The notes below the pieces were generated by a model. That model did no database searches. It worked only from the letters and a program-made list of their open reading frames with translations, and had not been told where the DNA came from. DNA of 10,612 bases from an uncultured Vogesella sp. (GTDB lineage Bacteria > Pseudomonadota > Gammaproteobacteria > Burkholderiales > Chromobacteriaceae), in NCBI GenBank assembly GCA_946479405.1, contig CAMLGD010000107.1:1-10612 (forward strand). The letters run 5' to 3'. Below are positions 323-10,187 of the stretch, one piece after another. Each line of letters begins with the position of its first letter. Position 1 is the first letter of the stretch. The position numbers and the translations under genes are program-made.

Positions 323-357
323 GGCAAGGTTGGCCGCAAGCTGCGGCCAACCTTGCC
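323..357. repeat. Hairpin of two inverted GTTGGCCGCA copies
   Basis: GGCAAGGTTGGCCGCA (323-338) and its exact reverse complement (342-357) form a perfect 16-bp stem with a 3-nt AGC spacer. No T-run follows, and lysA already has its own terminator immediately upstream, so the hairpin is redundant for termination. The core decamer recurs through the window, including a second such hairpin at 2875-2910. Inverted pairs of uptake signals after genes are a known arrangement in Neisseria and Haemophilus; that this is one is inference. Confidence 0.85.
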
Positions 358-437
358 ATGATGCCCAACTGTCCCCTGCTGCACAGATGGAATAACGCGG
401 CAGACATCGGCCTGCGCTGCACTGGACCGCAAGCTGC

Positions 438-455
438 TAGCAGCAGCTGCTGCTA
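438..455. repeat. Perfect 18-bp CAG/CTG palindrome
   Basis: TAGCAGCAGCTGCTGCTA is a perfect palindrome in the gene-free stretch 270-584 upstream of hsp20. It overlaps a second palindrome, GCTGCTAGCAGC (433-444). It could be a protein-binding site or just a short CAG/CTG repeat; it lies about 50 bp upstream of the proposed hsp20 -35 box. Confidence 0.6.
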
Positions 456-470
456 CCCACCCCGCGGCGT

Positions 471-484
471 TTGCCATAGATCAA
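471..484 (+). promoter_or_regulatory. FNR/ANR-like half-conserved site
   Basis: TTGCC-ATAG-ATCAA matches 8 of the 10 defined bases of the FNR/ANR consensus TTGAT-N4-ATCAA. With the promoter proposed at 504-532, its centre lies at about -61.5, the usual class I activator position. Only one half-site is perfect, so this is tentative. Confidence 0.35.
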
Positions 485-503
485 ACCACCCCGCACCCCA
501 CTC

Positions 504-532
504 TTGAGCTACCGCCACTGCGGCACTATATC
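504..532 (+). promoter_or_regulatory. Candidate hsp20 promoter
   Basis: TTGAGC (504-509) and TATATC (527-532) are separated by 17 bases, which fits a sigma-70 promoter with four of six matches in each box. CTTGAG at 503-508 also resembles a sigma-32 -35 box, but no CCCCAT-type -10 follows, so the sigma factor is undecided. Predicted transcription start is near 539, leaving about 46 nt of leader. Confidence 0.4.
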
Positions 533-584
533 CATGGCAAGCGGCCAAAAACCGCTACAACCCACTGATGCACAAGGAGAAGCC

Positions 585-1013
585 ATGAATATCCTGCCCT
601 CCCGCAGCGGCCTGTTCGACGAACTGTTCCGCGACTTCACCAGCCCCGGTTTCTTCATCAAACCACTGCACGGCGACACCCTGCCGTCGCAGATCAAGCT
701 GGATGTAAACGAGACCGACAGCGGCTACACCGTGCTGGCAGAGATGCCGGGCGTGACCAAGGACGATATCCACGTGGAAATCGACGGCCCGCAGGTCACC
801 ATCAAGGCGGAAGTGAAACAGTTCGACAGCCAGAACAAGGACGAGCGCAGTCTGCGTAGCGAGCGCTACTACGGCATGGTGTCGCGCAGCTTCCAGCTGT
901 CGGCCGACATCGACCGCGAGCAAGCCAGCGCCAAGTACGAAAACGGGGTGCTGACGCTCACGCTGCCCAAGCGCCGTGGTGCCGCCGGTGGCACCCGGCT
1001 GCAGGTGGACTAA
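585..1013 (+). CDS. Small heat-shock protein, Hsp20/alpha-crystallin family
   Basis: A 142-residue protein; small heat-shock proteins of this type are ATP-independent cytoplasmic holdases that bind unfolding proteins and pass them to DnaK/ClpB. The alpha-crystallin domain spans roughly residues 38-130, with the MPGV segment followed by a KDDIHVEI strand and the hallmark NGVLTLTLPK motif near the end. The C-terminal LQV near the last residue is in the place of the I-x-I/V motif that joins subunits into oligomers. The start is ATG 585, with AAGGAGA at 574-580. A TTG at 504 in the same frame would give a longer product but sits inside the proposed promoter and lacks a Shine-Dalgarno sequence. 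The gene stands alone, ending before a hairpin shared with the convergent LysR gene. The family call is firm; the exact paralogue cannot be named. Confidence 0.93.
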   Translation: MNILPSRSGLFDELFRDFTSPGFFIKPLHGDTLPSQIKLDVNETDSGYTVLAEMPGVTKDDIHVEIDGPQVTIKAEVKQFDSQNKDERSLRSERYYGMVSRSFQLSADIDREQASAKYENGVLTLTLPKRRGAAGGTRLQVD

Positions 1014-1040
1014 GCCGGCAGCCTTGCCACAACGCCCTAC

Positions 1041-1067
1041 AGCCCGGCCCCATGGCCGGGCTTGTCA
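1041..1067. terminator. Hairpin between convergent hsp20 and lysR-type gene
   Basis: AGCCCGGCC (1041-1049) and GGCCGGGCT (1054-1062) form a 9-bp GC-rich stem with a CCAT loop. The following bases are only weakly T-rich (CTTGTCATT), so termination would be modest. It lies between two convergent genes and may serve both. Confidence 0.5.
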
Positions 1068-1985
1068 TTACGGCTCCGTCAACGGCAGCAACTGCGGGCG
1101 GATCACCTCGTCCAGCCAGTTCATGAACAGTTGCACCCGCCGCGGCTGGTGGCGGCGGTTGGCGTACAGCAGGCTCACCGGCATCGGCGCCGCCTGCCAT
1201 TGCGGCAATACCTCCTGCAGCTGGCCTGCGGCCAACTGTGCCGCCACCGCCACGCGTGGCAGCTGCACGATGCCCATGCCGGCCAGGCAGGCCGCCAGGT
1301 AGGCATCGGCGCTGTTTACCACCAGCTGGCCGGCCACGGCCACGAAGCAGCGCTGCCCGGCCGCATCCAGGTATTCGAAGCCATCCGGCTTGCCGCCCAG
1401 CTGCGACACGTAGTGCACCAGCCGGTGCGCGACCAGGTCATCCAGCGTCTGCGGCGTGCCGTGCACCGCCAGGTAGGCCGGGCTGGCGCAGTTGGCCAGC
1501 GCAAAGCGTCCCAGCGGCCGGCAGATCAGGCTGGCGTCGCGCACCTCCCCCACCCGCACCACGCAGTCGAAGCCTTCACGCACCAGATCGACGCGGCGGT
1601 CGGTGCTGGACAGCTCCAGCTGCAGCCCGGGATGGGCGGCGAGAAACGCCGGCAGCTGCGGCAGCACCATATTGCGGGCAATGCCGCTGGACATGTCCAC
1701 CCGCAGCCGGCCGCTGACCGCCGCCTGTTGCTGCTGGAACATGGCGCCCAGCTCGTCGAAATCCGCCAGCAGATCGCTGCTGCGCTGCAGGAACAGCTGC
1801 CCGTCCTGGGTCAGCTGCACCCGCCGTGTAGTGCGGTGCAGCAGGCGGGTGCCGAGCCGGTTTTCCAGCTGCTGCACTGCGTCCGACACCGTGGCGCGCG
1901 GCAGGCCCAGGCTTTCGCTGGCGCGGATGAAGCTGCCCAGCTCCGCCACCCGCAGGAATACGCGTATTGCGTCCAGTTGCTCCAT
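1068..1985 (-). CDS. LysR-family transcriptional regulator
   Basis: A 305-residue protein of normal LysR length. The N-terminal winged helix-turn-helix is at about residues 3-60: the segment LDAIRVFLRVAELGSF, then a recognition region with SLGLPRATVSDAVQQLE and RLLHRTTR. The C-terminal periplasmic-binding-protein-like effector domain runs from about residue 90 to the end. The sequence has the features of the large CrgA/DmlR-like LysR group (VFLRVAELGSF, RTTRRVQLT, VRVGEVRDASLICRPLG). The start is ATG 1985 because GGAG (1991-1994) sits 5 nt upstream; an in-frame GTG at 1991 would overlap that Shine-Dalgarno. It is divergent from the dehydrogenase at 2116, with a 19-bp palindrome between them, so it probably represses itself and controls that gene. 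The effector is unknown. It carries one GTTGGCCGCA copy (1227-1236). Confidence 0.93.
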   Translation of the reverse strand: MEQLDAIRVFLRVAELGSFIRASESLGLPRATVSDAVQQLENRLGTRLLHRTTRRVQLTQDGQLFLQRSSDLLADFDELGAMFQQQQAAVSGRLRVDMSSGIARNMVLPQLPAFLAAHPGLQLELSSTDRRVDLVREGFDCVVRVGEVRDASLICRPLGRFALANCASPAYLAVHGTPQTLDDLVAHRLVHYVSQLGGKPDGFEYLDAAGQRCFVAVAGQLVVNSADAYLAACLAGMGIVQLPRVAVAAQLAAGQLQEVLPQWQAAPMPVSLLYANRRHQPRRVQLFMNWLDEVIRPQLLPLTEP

Positions 1986-1996
1986 GCCCACTCCAT

Positions 1997-2015
1997 TGTC
2001 CGGATTATCCGGACA
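1997..2015. promoter_or_regulatory. Palindromic LysR-type operator
   Basis: TGTCCGGATTATCCGGACA is a perfect inverted repeat with 9-bp arms around one base, 12 bp upstream of the regulator start. On the minus strand it contains GATAAT, a good -10 box, so bound regulator would block its own promoter. Size, symmetry and position fit a LysR recognition site. Confidence 0.7.
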
Positions 2016-2115
2016 GTCTAACCAGATTCAGCCGATTTATCGCCCCGCAGCCCGGCAATAGACTGCACAGCATGACGGCAGCCGCCGTTTCCCTACTGCC
2101 AACAGGAGTCACAGC

Positions 2116-2871
2116 ATGCGCAAGATCGCCATCATCACCGGGGCCAGCCGTGGCCTGGGCCGCAATACCGCCCTGAAACTGGCTGCCCGCCACACCGACA
2201 TCATCTTCACCTACCACAGCAACCGCGCCGCCGCCGACGAGGTGGTCGCCGCCATCGAAGCGCTGGGCGGCAAGGCGCTGGCACTGCAGCTGGATGTGGG
2301 TCAGGTCGCCAGTCACGCCGGCTTTGCCGACGCCGTGCGCAGCGCACTGCGCCAGCACTGGCAGCGCGACAGCTTCGATTTCCTGATCAACAACGCCGGC
2401 ATGGGCGTGCATGCCGCCTTTGCCGACACCAGCGAGGCGCAGTTTGACCTGCTGCTGAACACCCACTTCAAGGGCATGTTCTTCCTCACCCAGGCGCTGC
2501 TGCCGCTGCTGGCCGACGGCGGCCGCATCGTCAACCTGTCCAGCGGTCTGGCTCGCTTCGCGCTGCCGGGCTATGCCGCCTACGCGGCGATGAAAGGCGC
2601 GGTGGAGGTACTGACCCGCTACCTGGCCAAGGAGCTGGGGCCGCGCGGCATTGCCGTCAACACCATCGCCCCCGGCGCCATCGCCACCGATTTTGGCGGC
2701 GGCACGGTGCGCGACAACCCGCAGGTGAATGCCTTCATCGCCAGCCAGACCGCGCTGGGCCGCGTCGGCGAGGCGGACGACATCGGCGGCGCCATCGCTG
2801 CACTGCTGTCGGACGACAGCCGCTGGGTCAACGCGCAGCGTATCGAGGTATCCGGCGGCATGATGCTGTAA
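2116..2871 (+). CDS. Short-chain dehydrogenase/reductase (SDR), classical type
   Basis: A 251-residue NAD(P)-dependent oxidoreductase of normal classical-SDR length. Visible motifs in order: the Rossmann TGASRGLG (residues 8-15), NNAG (92-95), catalytic Ser143, and the Y156-x-x-x-K160 pair in YAAMK. The NTIAPGAIATDF segment follows, and the C-terminal VSGGMML tail resembles the FabG-like group. Basic Arg12 after the first glycine region suggests NADPH preference, which is inference. Start ATG 2116 is supported by AGGAG at 2104-2108. The divergent LysR gene likely regulates it. The substrate cannot be read from the sequence; similar LysR-linked SDRs act on small carbonyl compounds. The stop is followed after 3 bases by a GTTGGCCGCA hairpin. 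Confidence 0.93.
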   Translation: MRKIAIITGASRGLGRNTALKLAARHTDIIFTYHSNRAAADEVVAAIEALGGKALALQLDVGQVASHAGFADAVRSALRQHWQRDSFDFLINNAGMGVHAAFADTSEAQFDLLLNTHFKGMFFLTQALLPLLADGGRIVNLSSGLARFALPGYAAYAAMKGAVEVLTRYLAKELGPRGIAVNTIAPGAIATDFGGGTVRDNPQVNAFIASQTALGRVGEADDIGGAIAALLSDDSRWVNAQRIEVSGGMML

Positions 2872-2874
2872 CGG

Positions 2875-2910
2875 CCAAAGGTTGGCCGCAGGCTTGCGGC
2901 CAACCTTTGG
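2875..2910. repeat. Second hairpin of inverted GTTGGCCGCA copies
   Basis: CCAAAGGTTGGCCGCA (2875-2890) and its exact reverse complement (2895-2910) form a perfect 16-bp stem with a GGCT loop, starting 3 bases after the SDR stop. No T-run follows. Only the inner 11 bp of the stem match the hairpin at 323-357; the outer arm bases differ but are still perfectly compensated, so the stem as well as the core is kept. Confidence 0.88.
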
Positions 2911-2913
2911 TGC

Positions 2914-2940
2914 AGCAGCCCCGGCCTTGCCGGCTGCTTT
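2914..2940 (+). terminator. Possible weak terminator after the SDR gene
   Basis: AGCAG (2914-2918) with CTGCT (2934-2938), and CCGG (2921-2924) with CCGG (2930-2933), form a stem interrupted by a two-base bulge, followed by only three Ts. It may end SDR transcription together with the hairpin just upstream. The rest of the gap to 3135 shows one short inverted repeat and no clear promoter. Confidence 0.3.
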
Positions 2941-3034
2941 GCCTGCCATGTATCGACGGGACACTGATTGCCGTATTGCTGCTCGTAACCCCTACCGCTG
3001 GGCAATACGCCGGCATGGGCTTGCCCGGCATATC

Positions 3035-3043
3035 GCGGCCAAC
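3035..3043 (-). repeat. Intergenic GTTGGCCGC copy
   Basis: GCGGCCAAC in the gap upstream of the transporter gene; the tenth base is G rather than the usual A (minus-strand reading). It adjoins the inverted repeat at 3043-3058. Confidence 0.7.
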
Positions 3044-3058
3044 TGTCCCGGCGGACAG
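3043..3058. promoter_or_regulatory. CTGTCC-N4-GGACAG inverted repeat upstream of the transporter
   Basis: A perfect 6-bp inverted repeat with a CGGC spacer, about 80 bp upstream of the transporter start. Its half-site TGTCC/GGACA is the same as in the LysR operator at 1997-2015, but the spacing between half-sites is 4 instead of 9. It is a candidate operator only. Confidence 0.35.
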
Positions 3059-3135
3059 GAAACTATTACCCGGCGTGACAATCAACCAGCTTAACATCTG
3101 CCAAATTGCCACCCTGACTGTCCGCCATCGCCACC

Positions 3136-4542
3136 ATGCCGTTCCGCCTGTCCCGCAGCATGCTCACGCCGCTGATCATTGCTACCGCCCTGTTCATGGA
3201 AAACATGGACGCCACCGTGATTGCCACCTCGCTGCCGGCCATCGCCGTCGATCTGGGGGTGGACCCGATTGCCCTCAAGCTGGCGCTAACCTCCTATCTG
3301 GTCAGCCTGGCGGTGTTCATCCCGCTCAGCGGCTGGATGGCCGACCGCTTCGGCGCGCGCCGCATCTTCCGCGCCGCCATCGTGGTGTTCAGTGCCGGCT
3401 CGCTGCTGTGCGCGTTCAGCGGCAGCCTGGCCGGCTTTGTGCTGGCACGCTTCATCCAGGGCATCGGCGGCGCGATGATGGTACCGGTAGGCAAGCTGGT
3501 GATCCTGCGCACCACGGCGAAAGAAGAACTGGTGCGGGCGATGAGCTATCTCACCATTCCGGCGCTGCTGGGGCCGGTGGTGGGGCCGCCGCTGGGCGGC
3601 TTCATCAGCACCTATTTTCACTGGCGCTGGATTTTCCTGATCAACCTGCCCATCGGCCTGCTGGGGCTGGTGCTGGCCGGGCGCTACATCGACAACCTGC
3701 GCGATGACAAGGTGCCGCCACTGGACTGGCTGGGCTTTGCCTTTACCGGCCTTGGCCTGTCGCTGGCCATGCTGGGGCTGGCGACCGAGGGCAAGCATAT
3801 GTTGTCGATGGGCTGGTCCACCACGCTGGCCATTGCCGGCGGCTTGCTGCTGGCGCTGTACCCGTGGCATGCCCGCCGCCGGCAACACCCGCTGCTGGAT
3901 TTGTCGCTGCTGCGGCTACCCACCTTCCACGTCAGCATTGTCGGCGGCTTTCTGTTCCGCGTCGGCATGGGCTCCACCCCGTTCCTGCTGCCGCTGATGC
4001 TGCAGCTGGGCTTTGGCCTGACACCGTTCCAGTCCGGCCTGCTCACCTGCTCCACCGCGCTGGGCGCCATGTTCATGAAGACCATTGTCAGCCGCATCCT
4101 GCAACGCTTCGGCTTTCGCCAGGTATTGCTGGTCAACAGCGTATTGTGCGGCGTGTCGTTTGCCGCCTACGGCCTGTTCGACGCCCACAGCCCGCACTGG
4201 CTGATGCTGGCCACCTTCCTGCTCGGCGGCTGCCTGCGCTCGCTGCAGTTCACCAGCCTGAACGCCATCGGCTTTGCCGACATTGCCCCCGCCGGCATGG
4301 GCCATGCCTCCACCCTGTCCAGCGTGGCGATGCAGCTGGCGTCCGGCGTGGGGGTAACGTTGGCCGCATTCGCGCTGCAGGGCGTGGCGCAGTGGCAGGG
4401 CCACACCACGCTGCAGGGCAGCGACTTCTCGTGGGCATTCCTGCTGATGGGTCTGCTGGCGATGCTGTCCACGCTGCAGTTCCGCCGCCTGCCACCGCAC
4501 GCCGGCGCACAGCTGGCGCGACCGGTGGCCAACGAGGGCTGA
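3136..4542 (+). CDS. MFS drug/H+ antiporter, DHA2-like (EmrB/QacA type)
   Basis: A 468-residue, strongly hydrophobic inner-membrane protein of the major facilitator superfamily. Near the N-terminus, MDATVIATSLPAIA is the DHA2-family signature in helix 1. GWMADRFGARR (about residues 67-77) is MFS motif A between helices 2 and 3. RFIQGIGGAMMVP follows, and GPVVGPPLGG (about 149-158) is the antiporter motif C. HWRWIFLINLPIG is usual in EmrB-like proteins. It would expel hydrophobic compounds using the proton gradient. The start ATG 3136 has no visible Shine-Dalgarno, and an in-frame TGA at 3115-3117 rules out a much longer product; Met at 3160 is the alternative and also lacks one. No HlyD-type partner is encoded nearby, so it may act alone. 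It converges on the Lrp gene with 22 bp between the stops and no hairpin. Confidence 0.92.
   Translation: MPFRLSRSMLTPLIIATALFMENMDATVIATSLPAIAVDLGVDPIALKLALTSYLVSLAVFIPLSGWMADRFGARRIFRAAIVVFSAGSLLCAFSGSLAGFVLARFIQGIGGAMMVPVGKLVILRTTAKEELVRAMSYLTIPALLGPVVGPPLGGFISTYFHWRWIFLINLPIGLLGLVLAGRYIDNLRDDKVPPLDWLGFAFTGLGLSLAMLGLATEGKHMLSMGWSTTLAIAGGLLLALYPWHARRRQHPLLDLSLLRLPTFHVSIVGGFLFRVGMGSTPFLLPLMLQLGFGLTPFQSGLLTCSTALGAMFMKTIVSRILQRFGFRQVLLVNSVLCGVSFAAYGLFDAHSPHWLMLATFLLGGCLRSLQFTSLNAIGFADIAPAGMGHASTLSSVAMQLASGVGVTLAAFALQGVAQWQGHTTLQGSDFSWAFLLMGLLAMLSTLQFRRLPPHAGAQLARPVANEG
4359..4368 (+). repeat. GTTGGCCGCA copy inside the transporter gene
   Basis: Read in frame as (G) TTG GCC GCA, giving Leu-Ala-Ala in a late transmembrane segment. 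Confidence 0.75.
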
Positions 4543-4564
4543 ACACCGACGGCACAACGCAGGA

Positions 4565-5068
4565 TCAGGACGCGGCAGGCGGCGTAGCCTGCAGCGGCAG
4601 CCGGCTGCCGGCCTTGATCTCGCGCAGCGCCAGGCTGGAGTGGATCGCCGCCACCCCCGGCAGCTGGCGCAGCACGTCCTCGACGAACTGGCTGTAATCG
4701 TCCAGCGAGCGCGCCACCACCTGCAGCAGGTAATCGGCGTTGCCGGTGATCTTGTGGCAACTCAGCACCCGTGCCTCGGCCTGCATCGCCAGCTCGAACT
4801 GGTTGGGCAGCTCGCCGCCATGCACGCCGAAGCTCACTTGCACGAAGGCCAACACGTCCAGCCCCAGCTTGCGGCGGTCGAGATTGGCCTGGTAGCCGGT
4901 AATGTAGCCGTCTTCCTCCAGCCGCTTCAGCCGCCGCCAGCACGGCGTCACACTCAGCGCCAGCTGCTCCGCCAGCGCGGTGTTGGACAGTGCGCCGTCC
5001 TGCTGCAACAGGCGCAAAATAGTCAGATCAGTATCATCCAGCGCACGGTTTGGATTTTTTTCGCTCAT
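4565..5068 (-). CDS. Lrp/AsnC-family transcriptional regulator
   Basis: A 167-residue protein of typical Lrp length. The N-terminal helix-turn-helix is at residues 11-60: DDTDLTILRLLQQDGALSNT, then LALSVTPCWRRLKRLEEDGYI. The C-terminal RAM ligand-binding and oligomerisation domain is at about residues 65-145, with the GNADYLL segment typical of the family. Start ATG 5068 is chosen because the family begins there; the frame runs further upstream to 5197 but that part has no family resemblance and crosses the operator. No strong Shine-Dalgarno is visible. It is divergent from the amidohydrolase at 5187 and shares a palindromic control region with it. It is probably a local feast/famine-type regulator sensing an amino acid or amine; the ligand is unknown. 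Confidence 0.94.
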   Translation of the reverse strand: MSEKNPNRALDDTDLTILRLLQQDGALSNTALAEQLALSVTPCWRRLKRLEEDGYITGYQANLDRRKLGLDVLAFVQVSFGVHGGELPNQFELAMQAEARVLSCHKITGNADYLLQVVARSLDDYSQFVEDVLRQLPGVAAIHSSLALREIKAGSRLPLQATPPAAS

Positions 5069-5079
5069 TGCAGCCAACT

Positions 5080-5098
5080 TTGAGAAAAACATTCTCAA
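5080..5098. promoter_or_regulatory. Palindromic operator between lrp-type gene and amidohydrolase
   Basis: TTGAGAAAAACATTCTCAA has perfect 7-bp arms around a 5-base A-rich centre, in an otherwise GC-rich region, 12 bp upstream of the regulator start. AT-rich palindromes of this length are usual Lrp/AsnC sites. The intergenic span is only 118 bp, so one site could serve both genes. Confidence 0.68.
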
Positions 5099-5186
5099 TA
5101 CTAGCCAGCCACGGCGCCAAATGGCAAAGCAATTCCCGCCGCCAGCGCCGATACTGAGCCATCTCCCAGCCCGGACGACCCGCACC

Positions 5187-6215
5187 ATGCTCACCATCTA
5201 CAGCGACACCCACCGCCTGCACCACGGCTCCGAACTCAAGGACGGCGTACTGATGCCGTGTTTCGAAATGCCCAGCCGCGCCGACACCGTGCTCAACCGC
5301 GTGCTACAGCAGCAGCTGGGCGAGGTCATCGCCCCGCACAGCTTCGGCGTCGAGCACTACGCCGGCGCGCACAGCCTGCGCTACCTCAGCTTCTTGCAGA
5401 ACGCGTGGCAGGAATGGCGCGCCAGCGGCCGCGAACACGATGCGCTGCCGCTGGTGTGGCCGGTGCGCGATCTGCGCAGCGACCTGGAGCCGGAATTCAT
5501 CGACGGCAAGCTGGGCTTCTACGCCATGGACGCCGGCGTGGCGATCACCGCCGGCACCTGGCAGGCGGTGAAGACCAGCGCCGACCTGGCGCTGACCGGC
5601 ATGCAGCTGATCCAGGGCGGCGAGCGTGCCGCCTTCGCGCTGTGCCGCCCGCCCGGCCACCACGCCGCGCATGAATACATGGGCGGTTACTGCTACCTGA
5701 ACAACGCCGCCATTGCCGCCCAGCATGCGCGCAATCACGGCGCCAGACGGGTGGCGGTGCTGGACGTGGACTACCACCACGGCAACGGCACGCAGAGCAT
5801 CTTCTACCAGCGCGACGACGTGCTGTTCCTGTCGCTGCATGGCGACCCGAAAAACAGCTACCCCTACTTTTCCGGCCACCGCGACGAACTGGGCGCCGGC
5901 GATGGTTTCGGCTACAACCTCAACCTGCCGCTGCCGCACGGCACCGACTGGCAAGGCTACAGTGCCGCGCTGCACAAGGCCTGCCAGCACATTGCCGGCT
6001 ACGCACCGGACGTGCTGGTGGTATCGCTGGGGGTGGATACCTTCAAGGACGACCCGATCAGCAGCTTCCGCCTGGAAAACGACGACTACCTGCGCATCGG
6101 CCAGATGCTGGCCAGGCTGGGACTGCCGGTGCTGTTCGTGCTGGAAGGCGGCTACATGGTGGACGACATCGGCGTCAACGCAGTGAACGTGCTGCAGGGC
6201 TTCGAAGGGGCATGA
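5187..6215 (+). CDS. Histone deacetylase-fold amidohydrolase, acetylpolyamine amidohydrolase-like
   Basis: A 342-residue zinc hydrolase of the arginase/deacetylase fold. Active-site residues can be placed: the His158-His159 pair in RPPGHHA, Asp193, zinc ligands Asp195 and His197 in DVDYHHGNGTQ, zinc ligand Asp284 in GVDTFKDDP, and the transition-state Tyr323 in EGGY. The opening MLTIYSDTHRLHHG with an early MPCFEMPSRADTVL segment, and length near 340, resemble bacterial acetylpolyamine amidohydrolases (Pseudomonas AphA/AphB type). These remove acetyl groups from acetylputrescine or acetylcadaverine and so feed polyamine catabolism. AcuC-like acetoin-utilisation deacetylases are the main alternative. 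Start ATG 5187 follows family alignment; ATG 5121 would add 22 residues of unrelated sequence, and neither has a clear Shine-Dalgarno. The divergent Lrp regulator is its likely controller. It ends 3 bp before the convergent next gene's stop. Confidence 0.9.
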   Translation: MLTIYSDTHRLHHGSELKDGVLMPCFEMPSRADTVLNRVLQQQLGEVIAPHSFGVEHYAGAHSLRYLSFLQNAWQEWRASGREHDALPLVWPVRDLRSDLEPEFIDGKLGFYAMDAGVAITAGTWQAVKTSADLALTGMQLIQGGERAAFALCRPPGHHAAHEYMGGYCYLNNAAIAAQHARNHGARRVAVLDVDYHHGNGTQSIFYQRDDVLFLSLHGDPKNSYPYFSGHRDELGAGDGFGYNLNLPLPHGTDWQGYSAALHKACQHIAGYAPDVLVVSLGVDTFKDDPISSFRLENDDYLRIGQMLARLGLPVLFVLEGGYMVDDIGVNAVNVLQGFEGA

Positions 6216-6218
6216 GCC

Positions 6219-6653
6219 TTACAGCGGCTTGAGTTCGCGCAGCAGTTTTTCCGCCTCCTCCGCCGGCAGCAGGCGGATGGAGACCGGATCGCCGCCAAAC
6301 GGAAACAGCCAGGACTTGCCCGGGCTGTAAGCCACCAGCAGGTAGTAGCTACTGCCGGCGACCGCACTCAGCTTCGCCACCCGTGGCCCCTGCGGAAACT
6401 CGCGAAAGCGGAACTCATGCTCGCCAGCCGCCAGCGGCAGCTGCCGATAATGCCCGCGCGGCAGACTGACCAGCGGCTGACCGTTGTCGGTGATGTTCAT
6501 GTCACTGGCAATCAAGGTGGCACCGCTGTTGTTCAGTACGTACAACATGGCCTGCGGCGCTTGCCCTACCGCCGCAGATGCCGTTTCTTCCGCCCGCAAC
6601 GGCGGCACAAGCAACAAACCACAGCACAACAAGACCAACAGTCGCCAACGCAT
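6219..6653 (-). CDS. Exported DUF2846-like protein
   Basis: A 144-residue protein with a clear signal peptide: MRWR, a Leu-rich core to about residue 16, then a cleavage site after Ala in PPLRA (about residue 21). No lipobox Cys is placed correctly, so it is probably a soluble periplasmic protein. The mature part has the pattern of DUF2846: LYVLNNSG..., a GHYRQLPLAAGEHEFRF segment (a beta hairpin leading to a pGxH-like motif), then a short SSYYLLVAY strand and a C-terminal acidic-basic helix EEAEKLLRELK. The function of this family is unknown. Start ATG 6653 is fixed by GGGAGGT (6661-6667) 7 nt upstream; the frame runs on to 6779 but without a signal peptide at that end. It is convergent with the amidohydrolase, with no room for a terminator. 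Confidence 0.82.
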   Translation of the reverse strand: MRWRLLVLLCCGLLLVPPLRAEETASAAVGQAPQAMLYVLNNSGATLIASDMNITDNGQPLVSLPRGHYRQLPLAAGEHEFRFREFPQGPRVAKLSAVAGSSYYLLVAYSPGKSWLFPFGGDPVSIRLLPAEEAEKLLRELKPL

Positions 6654-6660
6654 CGCATGC

Positions 6661-6667
6661 ACCTCCC
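6661..6667 (-). promoter_or_regulatory. Strong Shine-Dalgarno that fixes the DUF2846-like start
   Basis: GGGAGGT on the minus strand, 7 nt before ATG 6653. It rules out the longer in-frame extension. Confidence 0.8.
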
Positions 6668-6692
6668 TGCCGCTGGGCAAACCGCCCATTAC

Positions 6693-6721
6693 GCTATAGC
6701 GCAGATTGCCCGCTGTGCTAA
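6693..6721 (-). promoter_or_regulatory. Candidate promoter of the DUF2846-like gene
   Basis: On the minus strand TTAGCA (6716-6721) and TATAGC (6693-6698) are separated by 17 bases, each with four of six sigma-70 matches. Weak but well spaced and well placed. Confidence 0.35.
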
Positions 6722-6767
6722 TGCCAGTTGCGGTCACGCCGTTCACCCCAGGCAAAATCACCACGTG

Positions 6768-6779
6768 TTGCCGCGGCAA
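6768..6779. repeat. TTGCCGCGGCAA palindrome
   Basis: A perfect 12-bp palindrome immediately upstream of the sigma-54 promoter at 6782. It could be a regulator site. It is close for an enhancer of a sigma-54 activator, which usually binds further upstream. Confidence 0.4.
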
Positions 6780-6781
6780 AC

Positions 6782-6797
6782 TGGCATGCCAATTGCG
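6782..6797 (+). promoter_or_regulatory. Sigma-54 (RpoN) promoter
   Basis: TGGCATGCCAATTGCG matches the consensus TGGCAYRN4TTGCW at every defined base except the last. The GG (6783-6784) and GC (6795-6796) are exactly 12 bases apart, as at -24/-12. The expected transcription start near 6808 leaves about 23 nt before ATG 6831, with the Shine-Dalgarno AGGA (6819-6822) inside that leader. The match also lies within a near-palindrome (6779-6794), and a direct repeat of its distal half occurs at 6721-6732 (11 of 12 identical). Confidence 0.72.
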
Positions 6798-6830
6798 TAA
6801 TCAGCAGTCGTCACCAGCAGGAAAGATACG

Positions 6831-7451
6831 ATGATGCAGATCGGCAAGCAGATTGCACCGGCCAGCAGCACCCTGGCCGGCAGCACACAGGCAAAAACTA
6901 CCGACCGCGGCGACGGTTTTGCCGCCGTGGCGGCGAGCACGACCAGCGGCACAGCAAGCACCACCACCCCTGCCAGCGGCAACCGGCAGCCACTGAGCGA
7001 CAAGGAGCTGGCGCTGCTGCTGCCCACGCGCGAAAACGTTGGCCGCATGGCCGCCGACGTGCAGACACGGCTGCAGCAGAAGCTGGCTGCGGCCGGCATC
7101 AGTACCAGCCCGGCGTTCGAGCTGCTGGAAAGCGACCCCAACACTGGCTACATCAGCGTGCGCGGCGAGCGCCCGGATGCCGCCGCCATCGAGCAGCTGA
7201 TCAATGACGACGACAAGCTGTCGCTGGCGATCCACAACGTCAACGCCGTGGCCAGCCACATTCCCAGCCTGGAAGCCGGCACCGCCTACACCACGGCGTG
7301 GTATGCGGCCAACAGCGACAGCGCGCGCATGGCGGTGTTCGAGTACTACCGCGCGCTGATGACCCGCCTGCGCAGCGATACCCATATGCAGTTCGGCCCG
7401 CAGGGCATGGCGTTCAGCCTCAATGGCGAGGACATCCCACTGCCGGGCTGA
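6831..7451 (+). CDS. Uncharacterised protein with Ser/Thr/Ala-rich N-terminus
   Basis: A 206-residue protein I do not recognise. Residues 1-55 are low complexity, rich in Ser, Thr, Ala and Gly, with no signal peptide or membrane helix, so the protein is probably cytoplasmic or exported by a non-Sec route. Residues about 55-185 look folded and mostly helical: a conserved-looking LSDKELALLLPTRENV helix, a QTRLQQKLAAAGI helix, a SDPNTGYISVRGERPDAAAIEQLINDD segment (beta turn then helix), and a final WYAANSDSARMAVFEYYRALM helix. The G.I.V.G..PD...IE..I pattern recalls unnamed proteobacterial proteins, but no function is assigned. Start ATG 6831 uses AGGA (6819-6822); ATG 6834 is possible. A sigma-54 promoter lies just upstream, suggesting activator-dependent expression. 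No terminator is seen before the convergent AraC-type gene. Confidence 0.75.
   Translation: MMQIGKQIAPASSTLAGSTQAKTTDRGDGFAAVAASTTSGTASTTTPASGNRQPLSDKELALLLPTRENVGRMAADVQTRLQQKLAAAGISTSPAFELLESDPNTGYISVRGERPDAAAIEQLINDDDKLSLAIHNVNAVASHIPSLEAGTAYTTAWYAANSDSARMAVFEYYRALMTRLRSDTHMQFGPQGMAFSLNGEDIPLPG
7038..7047 (+). repeat. GTTGGCCGCA copy inside the uncharacterised gene
   Basis: Read as GTT GGC CGC A, giving Val-Gly-Arg. Confidence 0.75.
7304..7313 (-). repeat. Second GTTGGCCGCA copy in the uncharacterised gene
   Basis: Reads GCG GCC AAC (Ala-Ala-Asn) on the coding strand, opposite in orientation to the copy at 7038. Confidence 0.75.
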
Positions 7452-7490
7452 TCCCGCGGCGGCCGGCAACAGCGCGACACCACGCCGCCC

Positions 7491-8486
7491 TTACTCGCCT
7501 GCCTGCCACGGCTCCGGCATCGCTAACGGCGGCAGGCCTGCGCCCTGGAACGTCTGCCGCCACTCGCTGGGTGCCACGCCGAAAGCCTTGTGAAAGTGCA
7601 GCCGCAGCGAGGCCGCTGAGCCGAAACCGGCCTGCTGCGCAATGCTCTCCACCGGTAGCGCGCTGGTTTCCAGCAAGCGCTGGCAAAGCGCCAGCCGTTC
7701 GGCCAGCAGCCAGCCCTGCACCGTGCTGCCGGTAAGCTGGCGGAAGTGGCGGGTGAAGGTGCGCCGGCTCAGTAGCGCGCGCTGCGCCAGGCTATCCAGG
7801 CTGTGCGGCTGCGCCAGATTGGCACGCACCCAGTCCAGCAGGCCGGCTAGCCGCCCGCCGCGCACAGTGGCCGGCAGCGGCTGCTCGATATACTGCGCCT
7901 GCCCGCCCTGGCGATGCGGCGGCGTTACCAGCCGCCGCGCCACGCTGTTGGCCGCTTCGGCACCGCTGAGCTGGCGCAGCAGGTGCAGGCAGCAATCCAG
8001 CCCGGCTGCGGTGCCAGCCGAGGTCAGCAGCGCGCCATCGTCCAGGTACAGCACATCGGCATCCACCGTCACCGCCGGGAAACGGCTGGCGAAGTCATCG
8101 GCATAGGCCCAGTGCGTGGTAGCACGACGGCCATCCAGCAGGCCGGCCTGCGCCAGCACATACGCCCCCAGGCACAGCCCGACGATGCGCGCACCACGTT
8201 CATGCGCTGCGCGCAGTGCGGCCAACAGCGGCGCCGGCGCGGTTTCGGTGTGGTCGCGCCAGCTGGGCACAATCACTACCTCGGCCTGTTGCAGCGCTTC
8301 CAGCCCGGCCGCCAGCGTCAGGCCAAAGCCGGCGGAAGTGGCCAGCACCCCCGGCTCGGCGGCGCACACCTGCAGGTGGTAGGCCGGCGCCTGCAGCCGG
8401 TTCTCGCCAAACACCACACAGGGTACCGACAGGTGAAACGGGCTGATGTGATCGAACGCCACCACCGCAACGCGAATCTCGGACAT
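7491..8486 (-). CDS. AraC-family regulator with GATase1/DJ-1-like domain (FtrA-like)
   Basis: A 331-residue two-domain regulator. Residues 1-190 form a DJ-1/PfpI-like class I glutamine amidotransferase fold; GLCLGAYVLA carries Cys105 at the nucleophile elbow, followed by the RRATTHW segment usual in this group. In these regulators the domain senses a ligand rather than acting as an enzyme. Residues about 215-312 hold the AraC double helix-turn-helix: LDSLAQRALLSRRTFTRHFR, then VESIAQQAGFGSAASLRLHFHKAFGVAPSEWR. Start ATG 8486 has GGAGG at 8494-8498 (minus strand), 7 nt upstream. It is divergent from the isochorismatase-like hydrolase, which it probably controls. FtrA/GlxA-type relatives regulate amine, amino-acid or arginine-type catabolism, but the inducer here is unknown. 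Two GTTGGCCGC copies lie inside (7947-7955, 8217-8226). Confidence 0.93.
   Translation of the reverse strand: MSEIRVAVVAFDHISPFHLSVPCVVFGENRLQAPAYHLQVCAAEPGVLATSAGFGLTLAAGLEALQQAEVVIVPSWRDHTETAPAPLLAALRAAHERGARIVGLCLGAYVLAQAGLLDGRRATTHWAYADDFASRFPAVTVDADVLYLDDGALLTSAGTAAGLDCCLHLLRQLSGAEAANSVARRLVTPPHRQGGQAQYIEQPLPATVRGGRLAGLLDWVRANLAQPHSLDSLAQRALLSRRTFTRHFRQLTGSTVQGWLLAERLALCQRLLETSALPVESIAQQAGFGSAASLRLHFHKAFGVAPSEWRQTFQGAGLPPLAMPEPWQAGE
7947..7955 (+). repeat. GTTGGCCGC copy inside the AraC-type gene
   Basis: Tenth base is T. On the coding (minus) strand it reads GCG GCC AAC, Ala-Ala-Asn. Confidence 0.65.
8217..8226 (-). repeat. Second GTTGGCCGCA copy in the AraC-type gene
   Basis: On the coding strand it reads (G) TTG GCC GCA, Leu-Ala-Ala. 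Opposite orientation to the copy at 7947. Confidence 0.75.
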
Positions 8487-8536
8487 GAGCAGGCCTCCAC
8501 TACAATGGCCCGATCTTAACGCAAAATGTCATACGG

Positions 8537-8567
8537 GCCACTCGTGGCACTGTACGCGCCACGGCAC
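8537..8567. promoter_or_regulatory. Clustered repeats in the AraC-type/hydrolase control region
   Basis: The 116-bp divergent gap holds GCCAC-TC-GTGGC (8537-8548), CGTGGC-N9-GCCACG (8543-8563), and GGCAC repeated directly 17 bp apart (8546-8550, 8563-8567). Overlapping inverted and direct repeats of this sort suit an AraC-type operator, but no promoter boxes are clear. Confidence 0.4.
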
Positions 8568-8602
8568 ACTACCTCATCGCCAGCCAACATCAGGAGAGCA
8601 GC

Positions 8603-9226
8603 ATGAGTACCCCGAAACGCGCCTTGATCGTCATCGACGTACAGAACGAATACTTCAGCGGCAAGCTGGGCATCAGCTACCCGGACCCCGCCATTACCCT
8701 GCCCAACGTTGGCCGCGCCATGGATGCGGCCAACGCTGCCGGCATCCCGGTGGTGGTGGTGCAGCACATCACCCCGCCCGGCGCGCCGATCTTTGCCGAA
8801 GGCAGCCACGGCGCCGCGCTGCATCCCAGCATTGCCGAACGCCCGCGCGACCACCTGATCAGCAAGCAGCAGGCCAGCTGCTTTACCGGCACCGACCTGG
8901 CCGCCTGGCTGCGGGCGCGCGACATCGACACCCTGAGCATCGTCGGCTACATGACGCACAACTGCGATGCTTCCACGGCGATACACGCCAGCCACGACGG
9001 CTGGCAGGTGGAACTGCTGAGCGACGCCAGCGGCTCGCTGCCCTACCGCAACCGCGCCGGCAGCGCCAGCGCCGAGGAAATTCACCGCGTGTTCACGGTG
9101 GTGATGCAGACCGGCTTTGCCGCGGTGGCCAGCACCGCCGACTGGATCGCCGCGGTGCAGGCCGGCCAGCCACTGGCCGCTACCGAAGGCGTGCTCGGCT
9201 CGCATCTGCAGGCGGTGGCGCGGTAA
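8603..9226 (+). CDS. Isochorismatase-family cysteine hydrolase
   Basis: A 207-residue alpha/beta hydrolase of the isochorismatase/nicotinamidase superfamily. The catalytic triad can be placed: Asp12 in VIDVQNEYF, Lys88 in ISKQQASCF, and nucleophile Cys121 in GYMTHNCD. The following GWQVELLSDASGS strand-turn is family-typical. Members hydrolyse amide or vinyl-ether bonds (nicotinamide, N-carbamoyl compounds, ureido acids, isochorismate). The exact substrate cannot be told, and Asp instead of Val after the catalytic Cys sets it apart from nicotinamidases. Start ATG 8603 is supported by AGGAG (8592-8596). The divergent GATase1-AraC regulator is the expected controller. The gene ends before a strong bidirectional terminator, so it is transcribed alone. 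Confidence 0.92.
   Translation: MSTPKRALIVIDVQNEYFSGKLGISYPDPAITLPNVGRAMDAANAAGIPVVVVQHITPPGAPIFAEGSHGAALHPSIAERPRDHLISKQQASCFTGTDLAAWLRARDIDTLSIVGYMTHNCDASTAIHASHDGWQVELLSDASGSLPYRNRAGSASAEEIHRVFTVVMQTGFAAVASTADWIAAVQAGQPLAATEGVLGSHLQAVAR
8708..8734. repeat. Inverted pair of GTTGGCCGC copies inside the hydrolase gene
   Basis: GTTGGCCGC (8708-8716) and GCGGCCAAC (8726-8734) face each other across 9 bases in the coding sequence, encoding Val-Gly-Arg and Ala-Ala-Asn. It is the only inverted pair within a gene in the window. Confidence 0.8.
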
Positions 9227-9350
9227 GCGCCATTAACCAGACCCCTGATCCAGCGTTGCGCCTCCTTGCCGTGCTTTTGCACTGTCTGCGTCGGTGCCTT
9301 GGTTCAGGTACGCGGCGAGGTTCTGGTAGCAGCGCCCAGCCACTGCCAAC

Positions 9351-9360
9351 ATTGGCCGCA
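9351..9360 (+). repeat. Near-copy ATTGGCCGCA
   Basis: Nine of ten bases match GTTGGCCGCA. It lies directly against the left arm of the bidirectional terminator, in non-coding DNA. Confidence 0.5.
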
Positions 9361-9400
9361 AAAAAACCGCCAGCTGCGATCAGCAGTTAGCGGTTTTTTC
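9360..9400. terminator. Bidirectional intrinsic terminator
   Basis: A-run plus CCGC (9361-9370) pairs with GCGG plus T-run (9390-9399). An inner stem AGCTGC/GCAGTT has one G-T pair and a GATCA loop. The T-run on each strand suits termination of both the hydrolase (+) and the convergent FrnE-like gene (-). Confidence 0.88.
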
Positions 9401-9418
9401 TTGCGGACACGGTAGCAA

Positions 9419-9490
9419 GCGCAGGGTGGGCAAAGCGCATCCGGGGAACAGCTTTGGGCTTATCCGGGCGACCGCCCTGCCCAGGCGCAA
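9419..9490. repeat. Possible dispersed-repeat relic (GGGTGGGCAAAGCG type)
   Basis: AGGGTGGGCAAAGCGCA (9423-9439) is the opening of an intergenic repeat I recall from many proteobacterial genomes. About 35 bp downstream CCGCCCTGCCCAGGCGC forms an imperfect inverted partner. The interior is unlike a full element. No open frame is supported. From memory only, not checked. Confidence 0.35.
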
Positions 9491-9491
9491 C

Positions 9492-10187
9492 TTACTGGCA
9501 GCCGTCCGGCGTGCAGAACGGCGCCTCAACCCCTGCCGTGCTGCCGGCGCCAGCCAGCAGGCCCTGCAGGTAGCCGGCAAACGCTTCCGGTTTGCCCAGA
9601 TACGGCGACAGCTCCAGCCGCTGCAGGCGGCCATTCAGCTCCAGCAGCAACGAGGGGAAGCCGCGCAGGCCGTGGGCCGCCATGTCGCGGTGGCTGCGGC
9701 CAACGTGGGCGGCAAATTCGCTCTGCTGGCGCTGGTACTCGGCGGCAAAAGCCGCACCATCCAGCCCCTGCTCCTGCGCCAACTGCTGCAGCACCGCTGG
9801 CTCGGCAATACGCTGCCCTTCCACGTAATGCGCCTGCTGCAGGCGATGCAGCATGCTCAGCCCGTCCATCCCCAGCGCCTCGGCCGCCAGGATCGCCAGC
9901 GTCGGCGGCGTGCTGTCGAACACCGCGCCGCTATCCAGCAGCAGGCCGTTGAAGTAGGCATCGCCAAACGGCTGGCCGGTGAGCTGCTGGATGCGCTGAT
10001 CGTGCCCCATCACGTACTGGCGCAATTGCGGCGTGACCGGCTGCCGGTTCGGTCCGCTCATCATCGCCCCGGCGTGCAGCACGATGGCGAGGCCGGCAAC
10101 GTTGGCCGCGGCGGCCAGCAATGGCGCGGCGCCATAGCACCAGCCGCACAGCGGGTCGTAGTAGTAGTGGAGCTTGGCCGTTACCAT
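9492..10187 (-). CDS. DsbA-family thiol oxidoreductase, FrnE-like
   Basis: A 231-residue thioredoxin-fold protein with the DsbA-type helical insertion. The active-site C14-G-W-C17 sits in DPLCGWCYG right after the first strand, and the cis-proline loop is GLRGFPSLLLE. No signal peptide is present, so it acts in the cytoplasm, as do FrnE-type proteins. The C-terminal tail PFCTPDGCQ carries a second cysteine pair, C225-x4-C230. Deinococcus FrnE is reported to have a CX4C near its C-terminus that exchanges disulfides with the CXXC; a similar role here is inference. Start ATG 10187 overlaps the stop of the upstream hydrolase by 7 nt, and its Shine-Dalgarno AGGTG lies inside that gene, so the two are translationally coupled. 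It ends before the bidirectional terminator. Two GTTGGCCGC copies lie inside. Confidence 0.92.
   Translation of the reverse strand: MVTAKLHYYYDPLCGWCYGAAPLLAAAANVAGLAIVLHAGAMMSGPNRQPVTPQLRQYVMGHDQRIQQLTGQPFGDAYFNGLLLDSGAVFDSTPPTLAILAAEALGMDGLSMLHRLQQAHYVEGQRIAEPAVLQQLAQEQGLDGAAFAAEYQRQQSEFAAHVGRSHRDMAAHGLRGFPSLLLELNGRLQRLELSPYLGKPEAFAGYLQGLLAGAGSTAGVEAPFCTPDGCQ
9695..9704 (-). repeat. GTTGGCCGCA copy in the FrnE-like gene
   Basis: On the coding strand GTT GGC CGC A, Val-Gly-Arg. Confidence 0.75.
10101..10109 (+). repeat. Second GTTGGCCGC copy in the FrnE-like gene
   Basis: Tenth base is G. On the coding strand GCG GCC AAC, Ala-Ala-Asn. Confidence 0.65.

What the first reader, a model, noticed from the sequence alone, without database searches (positions are those of the whole stretch)
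323..10109. Overrepresented decamer GTTGGCCGCA: candidate new DNA-uptake-like signal
Seen: GTTGGCCGC occurs 15 times. Plus orientation: 329, 2881, 4359, 7038, 7947, 8708, 10101. Minus orientation: 343, 1228, 2896, 3035, 7305, 8218, 8726, 9696. Eleven of 15 have A next. A rough independent-base estimate at an assumed 65% GC gives about 0.25 expected copies on both strands. Five copies are intergenic, and four of those form two perfect hairpins. The ten coding copies use three frames (Leu-Ala-Ala x3, Val-Gly-Arg x3, Ala-Ala-Asn x4), so one codon or peptide preference does not explain them. Orientation is balanced, unlike Chi. Known: Neisseriaceae DUS (GCCGTCTGAA dialects, ComP receptor) and Pasteurellaceae USS behave like this. 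Inference: a distinct uptake dialect or other genome-wide motif. A 2.7-kb gap (4369-7037) has none.
Basis: partly seen in the sequence, partly recalled or inferred. Interest (0 to 1): 0.9.

Follow-up and report, generated by a model that had tools for sequence, protein, structure and literature searches.

The report
New DNA-uptake tag in Vogesella bacteria
Water bacteria of the genus Vogesella carry a ten-letter DNA tag about every one and a half to two kilobases across their genomes, and some relatives carry one- or two-letter variants of it; it looks like a self-recognition mark for taking up DNA, as known from the meningitis bacterium's family but with a different core, and a relative of the known receptor gene is there too.

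Summary
All 15 copies are where stated. The window's genome is not held, but the nearest one, a Vogesella, has 2,895 copies of GTTGGCCGCA in 4.1 Mb. All 13 Vogesella genomes have 1,871-2,895; the other 137 of 150 genomes have at most 58. [quoted passage not shown]
Other genera of the family carry their own forms: GTTGGCCGAA in four genera and one Aquitalea-group genome, GTTGGCCGAG in one genus; that Aquitalea-group genome has a second form. Chromobacterium, the other 9 Aquitalea-group genomes and two more genera lack them. This is the pattern of Neisseriaceae DUS dialects, with core CCG instead of the CTG shared by all eight published dialects.
An ortholog of the DUS receptor ComP is present. 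A basic residue in its alpha1-beta1 loop is kept in 22 of 23 genomes with the motif and in 0 of 34 genomes that have the ortholog but no motif.
Best reading: a new branch of ComP-read DNA uptake sequences. Uptake itself is untested.

The parts
323..357 (.). Hairpin of two decamers in opposite orientation: GTTGGCCGCA at 329-338 (+) and 342-351 (-), intergenic, about 10 bases after a separate terminator-like hairpin at 291-312
   Evidence: perfect fold -33.8 kcal/mol; terminator-like site 291-312
1227..1236 (-). decamer copy in the LysR-family gene (Leu-Ala-Ala)
   Evidence: identical in G001, changed in 4 other aligned genomes
2874..2911 (.). Hairpin of two decamers in opposite orientation: 2881-2890 (+) and 2895-2904 (-), just after the SDR gene
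   Evidence: both identical in G001, one of the two identical in G011
3035..3043 (-). nonamer copy, intergenic, next base not A
4359..4368 (+). decamer copy in the MFS gene (Leu-Ala-Ala)
   Evidence: identical in G011, changed in G001 and 5 others
7038..7047 (+). decamer copy in ORF 6831-7451 (Val-Gly-Arg)
   Evidence: identical in G001, the only aligned genome
7304..7313 (-). decamer copy in ORF 6831-7451 (Ala-Ala-Asn)
   Evidence: changed in G001, the only aligned genome
7947..7955 (+). nonamer copy, next base T, in the AraC/DJ-1 gene (Ala-Ala-Asn)
8217..8226 (-). decamer copy in the AraC/DJ-1 gene (Leu-Ala-Ala)
   Evidence: changed in all 7 aligned genomes
8708..8716 (+). nonamer copy, next base G, in the isochorismatase-family gene (Val-Gly-Arg)
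8725..8734 (-). decamer copy in the isochorismatase-family gene (Ala-Ala-Asn)
   Evidence: identical in 5 of 7 aligned genomes
9695..9704 (-). decamer copy in the DsbA-like gene (Val-Gly-Arg)
   Evidence: identical in 12 of 13 genomes
10101..10109 (+). nonamer copy, next base G, in the DsbA-like gene (Ala-Ala-Asn)

Best explanation
[quoted passage not shown] Inferred mechanism: during natural transformation the type IV minor pilin ComP on the cell surface binds this motif on outside DNA, the pilus pulls the DNA in and ComEC carries it across the inner membrane. DNA of the own kind is thus taken up preferentially, and biased uptake plus recombination spreads and keeps the motif on both strands. 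Shown here: abundance, both-strand use, dialects, opposite-facing pairs, site conservation, an orthologous ComP and its loop residues tracking the motif. Inferred: binding, uptake and drive.
For: 1,871-2,895 copies in 13 of 13 Vogesella genomes, at most 58 in the other 137 of 150 genomes. Top 10-mer in 400 kb, 274 against 3.0 expected; in coding sequence 232 against a mean of 10.8 and maximum of 17 in 20 synonymous-codon shuffles. Close pairs: 21 opposite, 0 same orientation. No link to the G-rich strand, 129 against 145. Dialects by genus and two forms in one genome, as Frye 2013 reports for Simonsiella muelleri. Sites are identical in orthologous DNA more often than control windows: 322 of 448 (72%) against 41%, and 214 of 444 (48%) against 17%. 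ComP ortholog: for the g2 protein the three ComP structures are the best three PDB sequence hits; for the Vogesella protein 2NBA is best and 2M3K and 5HZ7 rank 9 and 10; by fold the three rank 1-3. Basic residue in the alpha1-beta1 loop in 22 of 23 motif genomes and 0 of 34 motif-less genomes with the ortholog; basic residue in the beta1-beta2 loop in 19 of 23 against 1 of 34. Published NMR puts part of the first loop, the tip of the second and the DD-region at the DUS (PMC12061091, passage). ComEC over cut-off in 57 of 61 family genomes. Low-GC stretches have fewer copies (Spearman 0.84, 20 stretches).
Against: No transformation data: the search Vogesella + natural transformation listed two papers, neither read. 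ComEC is not over the cut-off in 2 of 13 Vogesella (G002, 98% complete in 330 contigs; G009, 88% complete). The orthologs have two cysteines in the C-terminal part, enough for one disulphide, where Neisseria ComP has two bridges reported as crucial for DUS binding. The residue aligned with Neisseria R78 is basic only in g3; the one aligned with K94 is Arg in Vogesella but also in motif-less g6 (the mapping is mine). G018 has the motif but Thr and Ala at the two loop positions; G022 needs its second, tandem pilin for the basic residue. ComP orthologs and ComEC persist in genera without the motif, so the genes alone do not prove the function. The presence/absence pattern rests on few independent losses on a weakly resolved tree. 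Window sites also turn over: several are changed in the nearest genomes.
Confidence: 0.85

Rival explanations
1. A chromosome-organisation or repair motif (Chi-, KOPS- or nucleoid-site-like) bound by an unknown cytoplasmic protein.
For: Genome-wide, short, sharp motif; spacing somewhat more even than random (CV 0.81 with close pairs removed).
Against: No bias to the G-rich strand (129 against 145); opposite-facing pairs favoured; the sequence changes by genus and is missing in whole genera, unlike a basic chromosome function; ComP loops track it.
Confidence: 0.06
2. A past uptake signal: the motif was spread by biased transformation, but competence or motif specificity has since been lost in the window's species.
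For: Absence elsewhere in the family, read as repeated loss; no report of competence found for Vogesella; ComEC not over the cut-off in 2 of 13 Vogesella.
Against: Copies are exact (one-mismatch forms at or near background) and more conserved than control windows; the ComP frame is open in 13 of 13 Vogesella.
Confidence: 0.07
3. Selected mainly as a transcription terminator or RNA hairpin element.
For: Two strong hairpins in the window; intergenic sites enriched: 43 intergenic and 4 edge sites of 274, in about 10% of bases.
Against: 227 of 274 sites lie within predicted coding sequence and 232 of 274 are not in a close pair; the terminator-like sites of the window scan do not include the two hairpins.
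Confidence: 0.01
4. A restriction-modification footprint or a small mobile repeat.
For: The motif contains the palindrome GGCC.
Against: A methylase site would not be expected to make one exact non-palindromic decamer about 90 times over-represented (inference); flanks beyond about 4 bases each side carry almost no information, so it is not a repeat element.
Confidence: 0.01

Closest known systems
DNA uptake sequence (DUS) dialects and ComP receptor of Neisseriaceae (Frye 2013, PMC3630211)
   Same: Length of 10-12, up to thousands of exact copies, both strands, inverted pairs, dialects by lineage, two forms in one genome, AG the commonest dinucleotide before the decamer in Vogesella (82 of 274) and most other samples (AC in g3), ComP orthologs; GTTGGCCGAA matches simDUS and mucDUS (the latter recalled) at 7 of 10 positions.
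   Different: Core +6..+8 is CCG, not the CTG invariant in all eight dialects; +10 is G in one genus, although A10 was also invariant; ComP has one pair of C-terminal cysteines where Neisseria ComP has two bridges. Frye found no obvious DUS in five genomes of Laribacter, Lutiella, Pseudogulbenkiania and Chromobacterium.
Uptake signal sequence (USS) of Pasteurellaceae (PMC12616744)
   Same: Genome-wide self-DNA tag with dialects; a minor pilin (PpdA/ComN) is the predicted receptor.
   Different: Unrelated motif (AAGTGCGGT / ACAAGCGGT), core GCGG, different proposed receptor.

Membership tests
Neisseriaceae-type DUS | Over-represented 10-12-mer in thousands of exact copies on both strands | tested here: met
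   2,895 copies, 1,458 and 1,437 by strand; O/E 90
Neisseriaceae-type DUS | Invariant CTG at +6..+8 and A at +10 | tested here: not met
   CCG in each form found; +10 is G in g4 (rule read)
Neisseriaceae-type DUS | Inverted-pair arrangement | tested here: met
   21 opposite, 0 same-orientation close pairs in 400 kb; in the smaller samples of six other groups 7 opposite, 1 same
Neisseriaceae-type DUS | Dialects follow lineage | tested here: met
   tree
Neisseriaceae-type DUS | Enhances DNA uptake and transformation | not testable with these tools
   needs a bench test
ComP (DUS receptor) | Type IV minor pilin homologous to ComP, Pfam ComP_DUS | tested here: met
   ComP structures 2M3K/5HZ7/2NBA among the PDB hits; PF16732 on P0001-P0013. 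PF16732 alone is not specific: all 61 family genomes match
ComP (DUS receptor) | Two disulphide bridges | tested here: not met
   only two cysteines in the C-terminal part of the motif-bearing orthologs (requirement read)
ComP (DUS receptor) | Basic residues R78, K94, K108 | tested here: inconclusive
   K94-equivalent is Arg in 13 of 13 Vogesella but also in the 9 motif-less g6 genomes; R78-equivalent basic among motif genomes only in the two g3; K108 not mapped (numbering mapped by me)
ComP (DUS receptor) | Sequence-specific binding of the cognate motif | not testable with these tools
   needs EMSA or NMR

The most novel reading that the evidence does not exclude
ComP-read self-DNA tagging is older than Neisseriaceae: the ancestor of Neisseriaceae and this family had it. 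One branch fixed a CTG core and the other a CCG core, with further dialect changes (CA in Vogesella, AG in g4, a second form with T at +4 in G018), and several lineages lost motif and receptor contacts together. The family would then be a natural experiment for the ComP recognition code.
Probability: 0.55. Interest if true: 0.85.

Novelty: new variant of a known kind. Interest (0 to 1): 0.78.

Why it matters
The papers I saw describe DUS in Neisseriaceae only, as eight dialects sharing one core. A second family with another core, its own dialects, one genome with two forms and lineages without any would let people test how ComP reads DNA, how dialects change and why lineages give up self-recognition. 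It also suggests a practical tool: adding AGGTTGGCCGCA to DNA may make environmental Vogesella easier to transform.

Tried and rejected
Plasmid collection with the whole window: 21 records, all partial matches. Pfam ComP_DUS as a marker: matches all 61 family genomes, so not specific. A seeming GTTTGCCGAG signal in one Chromobacterium (G050) came from a tandem repeat in one stretch, L300 (genome-wide count 38). Classic CTG-type DUS (GCNGYCTGAA) in the family: 67-210 copies per genome, no excess like the 1,996 of G104, a genome of another family, presumably Neisseriaceae. First rpoB tree picked antisense frames for about half the rows and was discarded; redone, with weak backbone support. Similarity of the new dialects to known DUS is suggestive only: random 10-mers reach 7 of 10 in 3% of trials. 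Some g8 genomes show a mild excess of the AA and AG forms (G028 62 and 92, G037 45 and 85), unexplained. Literature searches: DNA uptake sequence + Chromobacterium; the letters GTTGGCCGCA; Vogesella + uptake; DNA uptake sequence / ComP / overrepresented; Vogesella + natural transformation; Chromobacteriaceae + uptake sequence; DUS dialect + ComP; three letter strings of the motif; uptake sequence + Neisseriales. No listed title or abstract start describes this motif; some searches listed only part of their hits (20 of 41, 20 of 54, 20 of 49,497, 15 of 69), and only the papers named in the report were opened. In the loop comparison the first round left out 8 motif-less genomes; they, and a second ComP-like pilin in four motif-less g6 genomes, were added and did not change the result. 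The 4 g9 genomes have only matches at the level of other pilins and are not in the comparison.
Full report
Observation. The window carries ordinary chromosomal genes: HSP20, LysR, SDR, MFS, Lrp/AsnC, histone-deacetylase-like, AraC/DJ-1, isochorismatase-like and DsbA-like.

Whose genome. The window's assembly is not held; the nearest held genome is G001, 82-92% identical over the stretches of its syntenic block. Vogesella margarita came up as a relative (L026). By the same matching of counts, g7 holds Chromobacterium and g6 Aquitalea.

Genome-wide count. G001 has 1,458 + 1,437 copies of GTTGGCCGCA; the pattern read backwards has 8. Of 150 genomes, all 13 Vogesella have 1,871-2,895, 48 others of the family 8-58, and 89 of other families at most 52. 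In twenty 20-kb stretches of G001 (about a tenth of it) the decamer is the top 10-mer: 274 copies, 3.0 expected from a third-order Markov model. Before it stands preferably A-A-G; AG is the commonest preceding dinucleotide (82 of 274). One-mismatch forms are at or near background; the largest absolute excess is the form ending in G, 14 against 4.4. Coding copies number 232 against a mean of 10.8 after synonymous shuffling (genes picked by a greedy ORF rule). Close pairs are 21 opposite and 0 same orientation. Low-GC stretches are poor in sites (rho 0.84, n = 20).

Conservation. In 14 orthologous regions (the window and 13 genomes), decamers were identical in the partner in 322 of 448 comparisons against 41% of control windows for pairs at 85% identity or more, and in 214 of 444 against 17% for more distant pairs. 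Pairs are not independent and coding constraint was not modelled. Individual window sites also turn over: four of the eleven decamers are changed or unaligned in G001 (4359, 7304, 8217 changed; 342 unaligned).

Dialects. Samples from nine other genera showed related top 10-mers in five of them (g2, g3, g4, g5, g10) and none in g6 (two motif-less genomes sampled), g7, g8 and g9. Genome-wide, GTTGGCCGAA: g2 1,104, 893 and 183; g3 2,168 and 579; g5 1,245; g10 1,851; G018 of g6 1,368; Vogesella 8-34; every other family genome at most 78. GTTGGCCGAG: g4 1,940 and 1,590, next highest 165. G018 also has 635 GTTTGCCGAR, in the sample 12 of the AA form. Chromobacterium, the other 9 Aquitalea-group genomes, g8 and g9 have no comparable count, although some g8 genomes show a mild excess. 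Larger samples (60-160 kb per group) found no comparable substitute (best z 10.2, against 49.9 for the decamer in 80 kb of Vogesella). On an rpoB tree motif-bearing genera are spread through the family, with g3 and g4 outside the rest (support 83/88) and G018 beside motif-less g6 (85/97); much of the backbone is unresolved. The simplest reading is an ancestral AA dialect with changes in Vogesella and g4 and several losses.

Receptor. Searching PDB sequences with a pilin from g2 returns the three ComP structures first (best E 4.5e-13). The Vogesella ortholog has ComP 2NBA first (4.2e-10); 2M3K and 5HZ7 come 9th and 10th, most entries between being major pilins matched mainly at the N-terminal helix. 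A model of P0001, 97% identical to the V. margarita protein (mean pLDDT 71.6, below 50 at residues 94-99), has the three ComP entries as its top three fold matches; only the first has E below 0.001. A profile finds full-length matches in nine of ten genera (weaker in g8, 88-123 bits); in g9 only pilin-level matches. Across 23 motif genomes and all 34 motif-less genomes that have the ortholog, a Lys in the alpha1-beta1 loop is present in 21 of 23 and in none of 34; G022's second, tandem pilin has Arg there, G018 has Thr; two g8 proteins have a basic residue one position further on. A basic residue in the beta1-beta2 loop is present in 19 of 23 and in 1 of 34. Loop assignment rests on the model's secondary structure and the alignment to ComP. 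A passage of PMC12061091 says NMR places part of both loops and the DD-region at the DUS. The orthologs have only two C-terminal cysteines where Neisseria ComP has two bridges. ComEC is over the cut-off in 57 of 61 genomes, motif or not; the four below are G002 and G009 (Vogesella), G022 and G032.

Literature. Frye 2013 (PMC3630211; section on dialects read; passages): eight dialects, CTG at +6..+8 and A at +10 invariant, and five genomes of Laribacter, Lutiella, Pseudogulbenkiania and Chromobacterium without an obvious DUS. PMC12616744 (passages) still counts eight dialects in October 2025. PMC12061091 (passages), PMC3868556 (passages) and PMC10715097 (passages) were also seen. I found no description of this motif in the searches listed under Tried and rejected; the library lacks most subscription papers and preprints.

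Judgement. It works like a DUS with high probability. As a member of the published Neisseriaceae DUS set it fails the CTG-core test, so it is filed as a new variant. Function, binding and drive are inferred.

Noticed in passing
window 9205-9361: A stretch of about 100-150 bp after the isochorismatase-family gene matches many dispersed places (mostly 75-85% identity) in several Vogesella genomes, such as G003, G005, G006, G012 and G013: a short dispersed repeat, possibly REP- or MITE-like.
   Followed up: no
L300 16822-17944: Tandem repeat of period about 102 bp in a Chromobacterium genome (G050) that mimics a motif signal.
   Followed up: partly
L154 18666-19633 (G022): Two tandem ComP-like pilin genes side by side; only the second has the usual ComP loop signature, the first resembles a second pilin found in four motif-less g6 genomes.
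   Followed up: partly
G041:C1:465054-465458 (L249): The ComP-ortholog match in this motif-less g8 genome is reported with one in-frame TGA, hinting at decay.
   Followed up: no
G028, G037 (g8): Mild excess of GTTGGCCGAA and GTTGGCCGAG (62 and 92; 45 and 85 copies) in genomes otherwise without the motif; possibly remnants.
   Followed up: no
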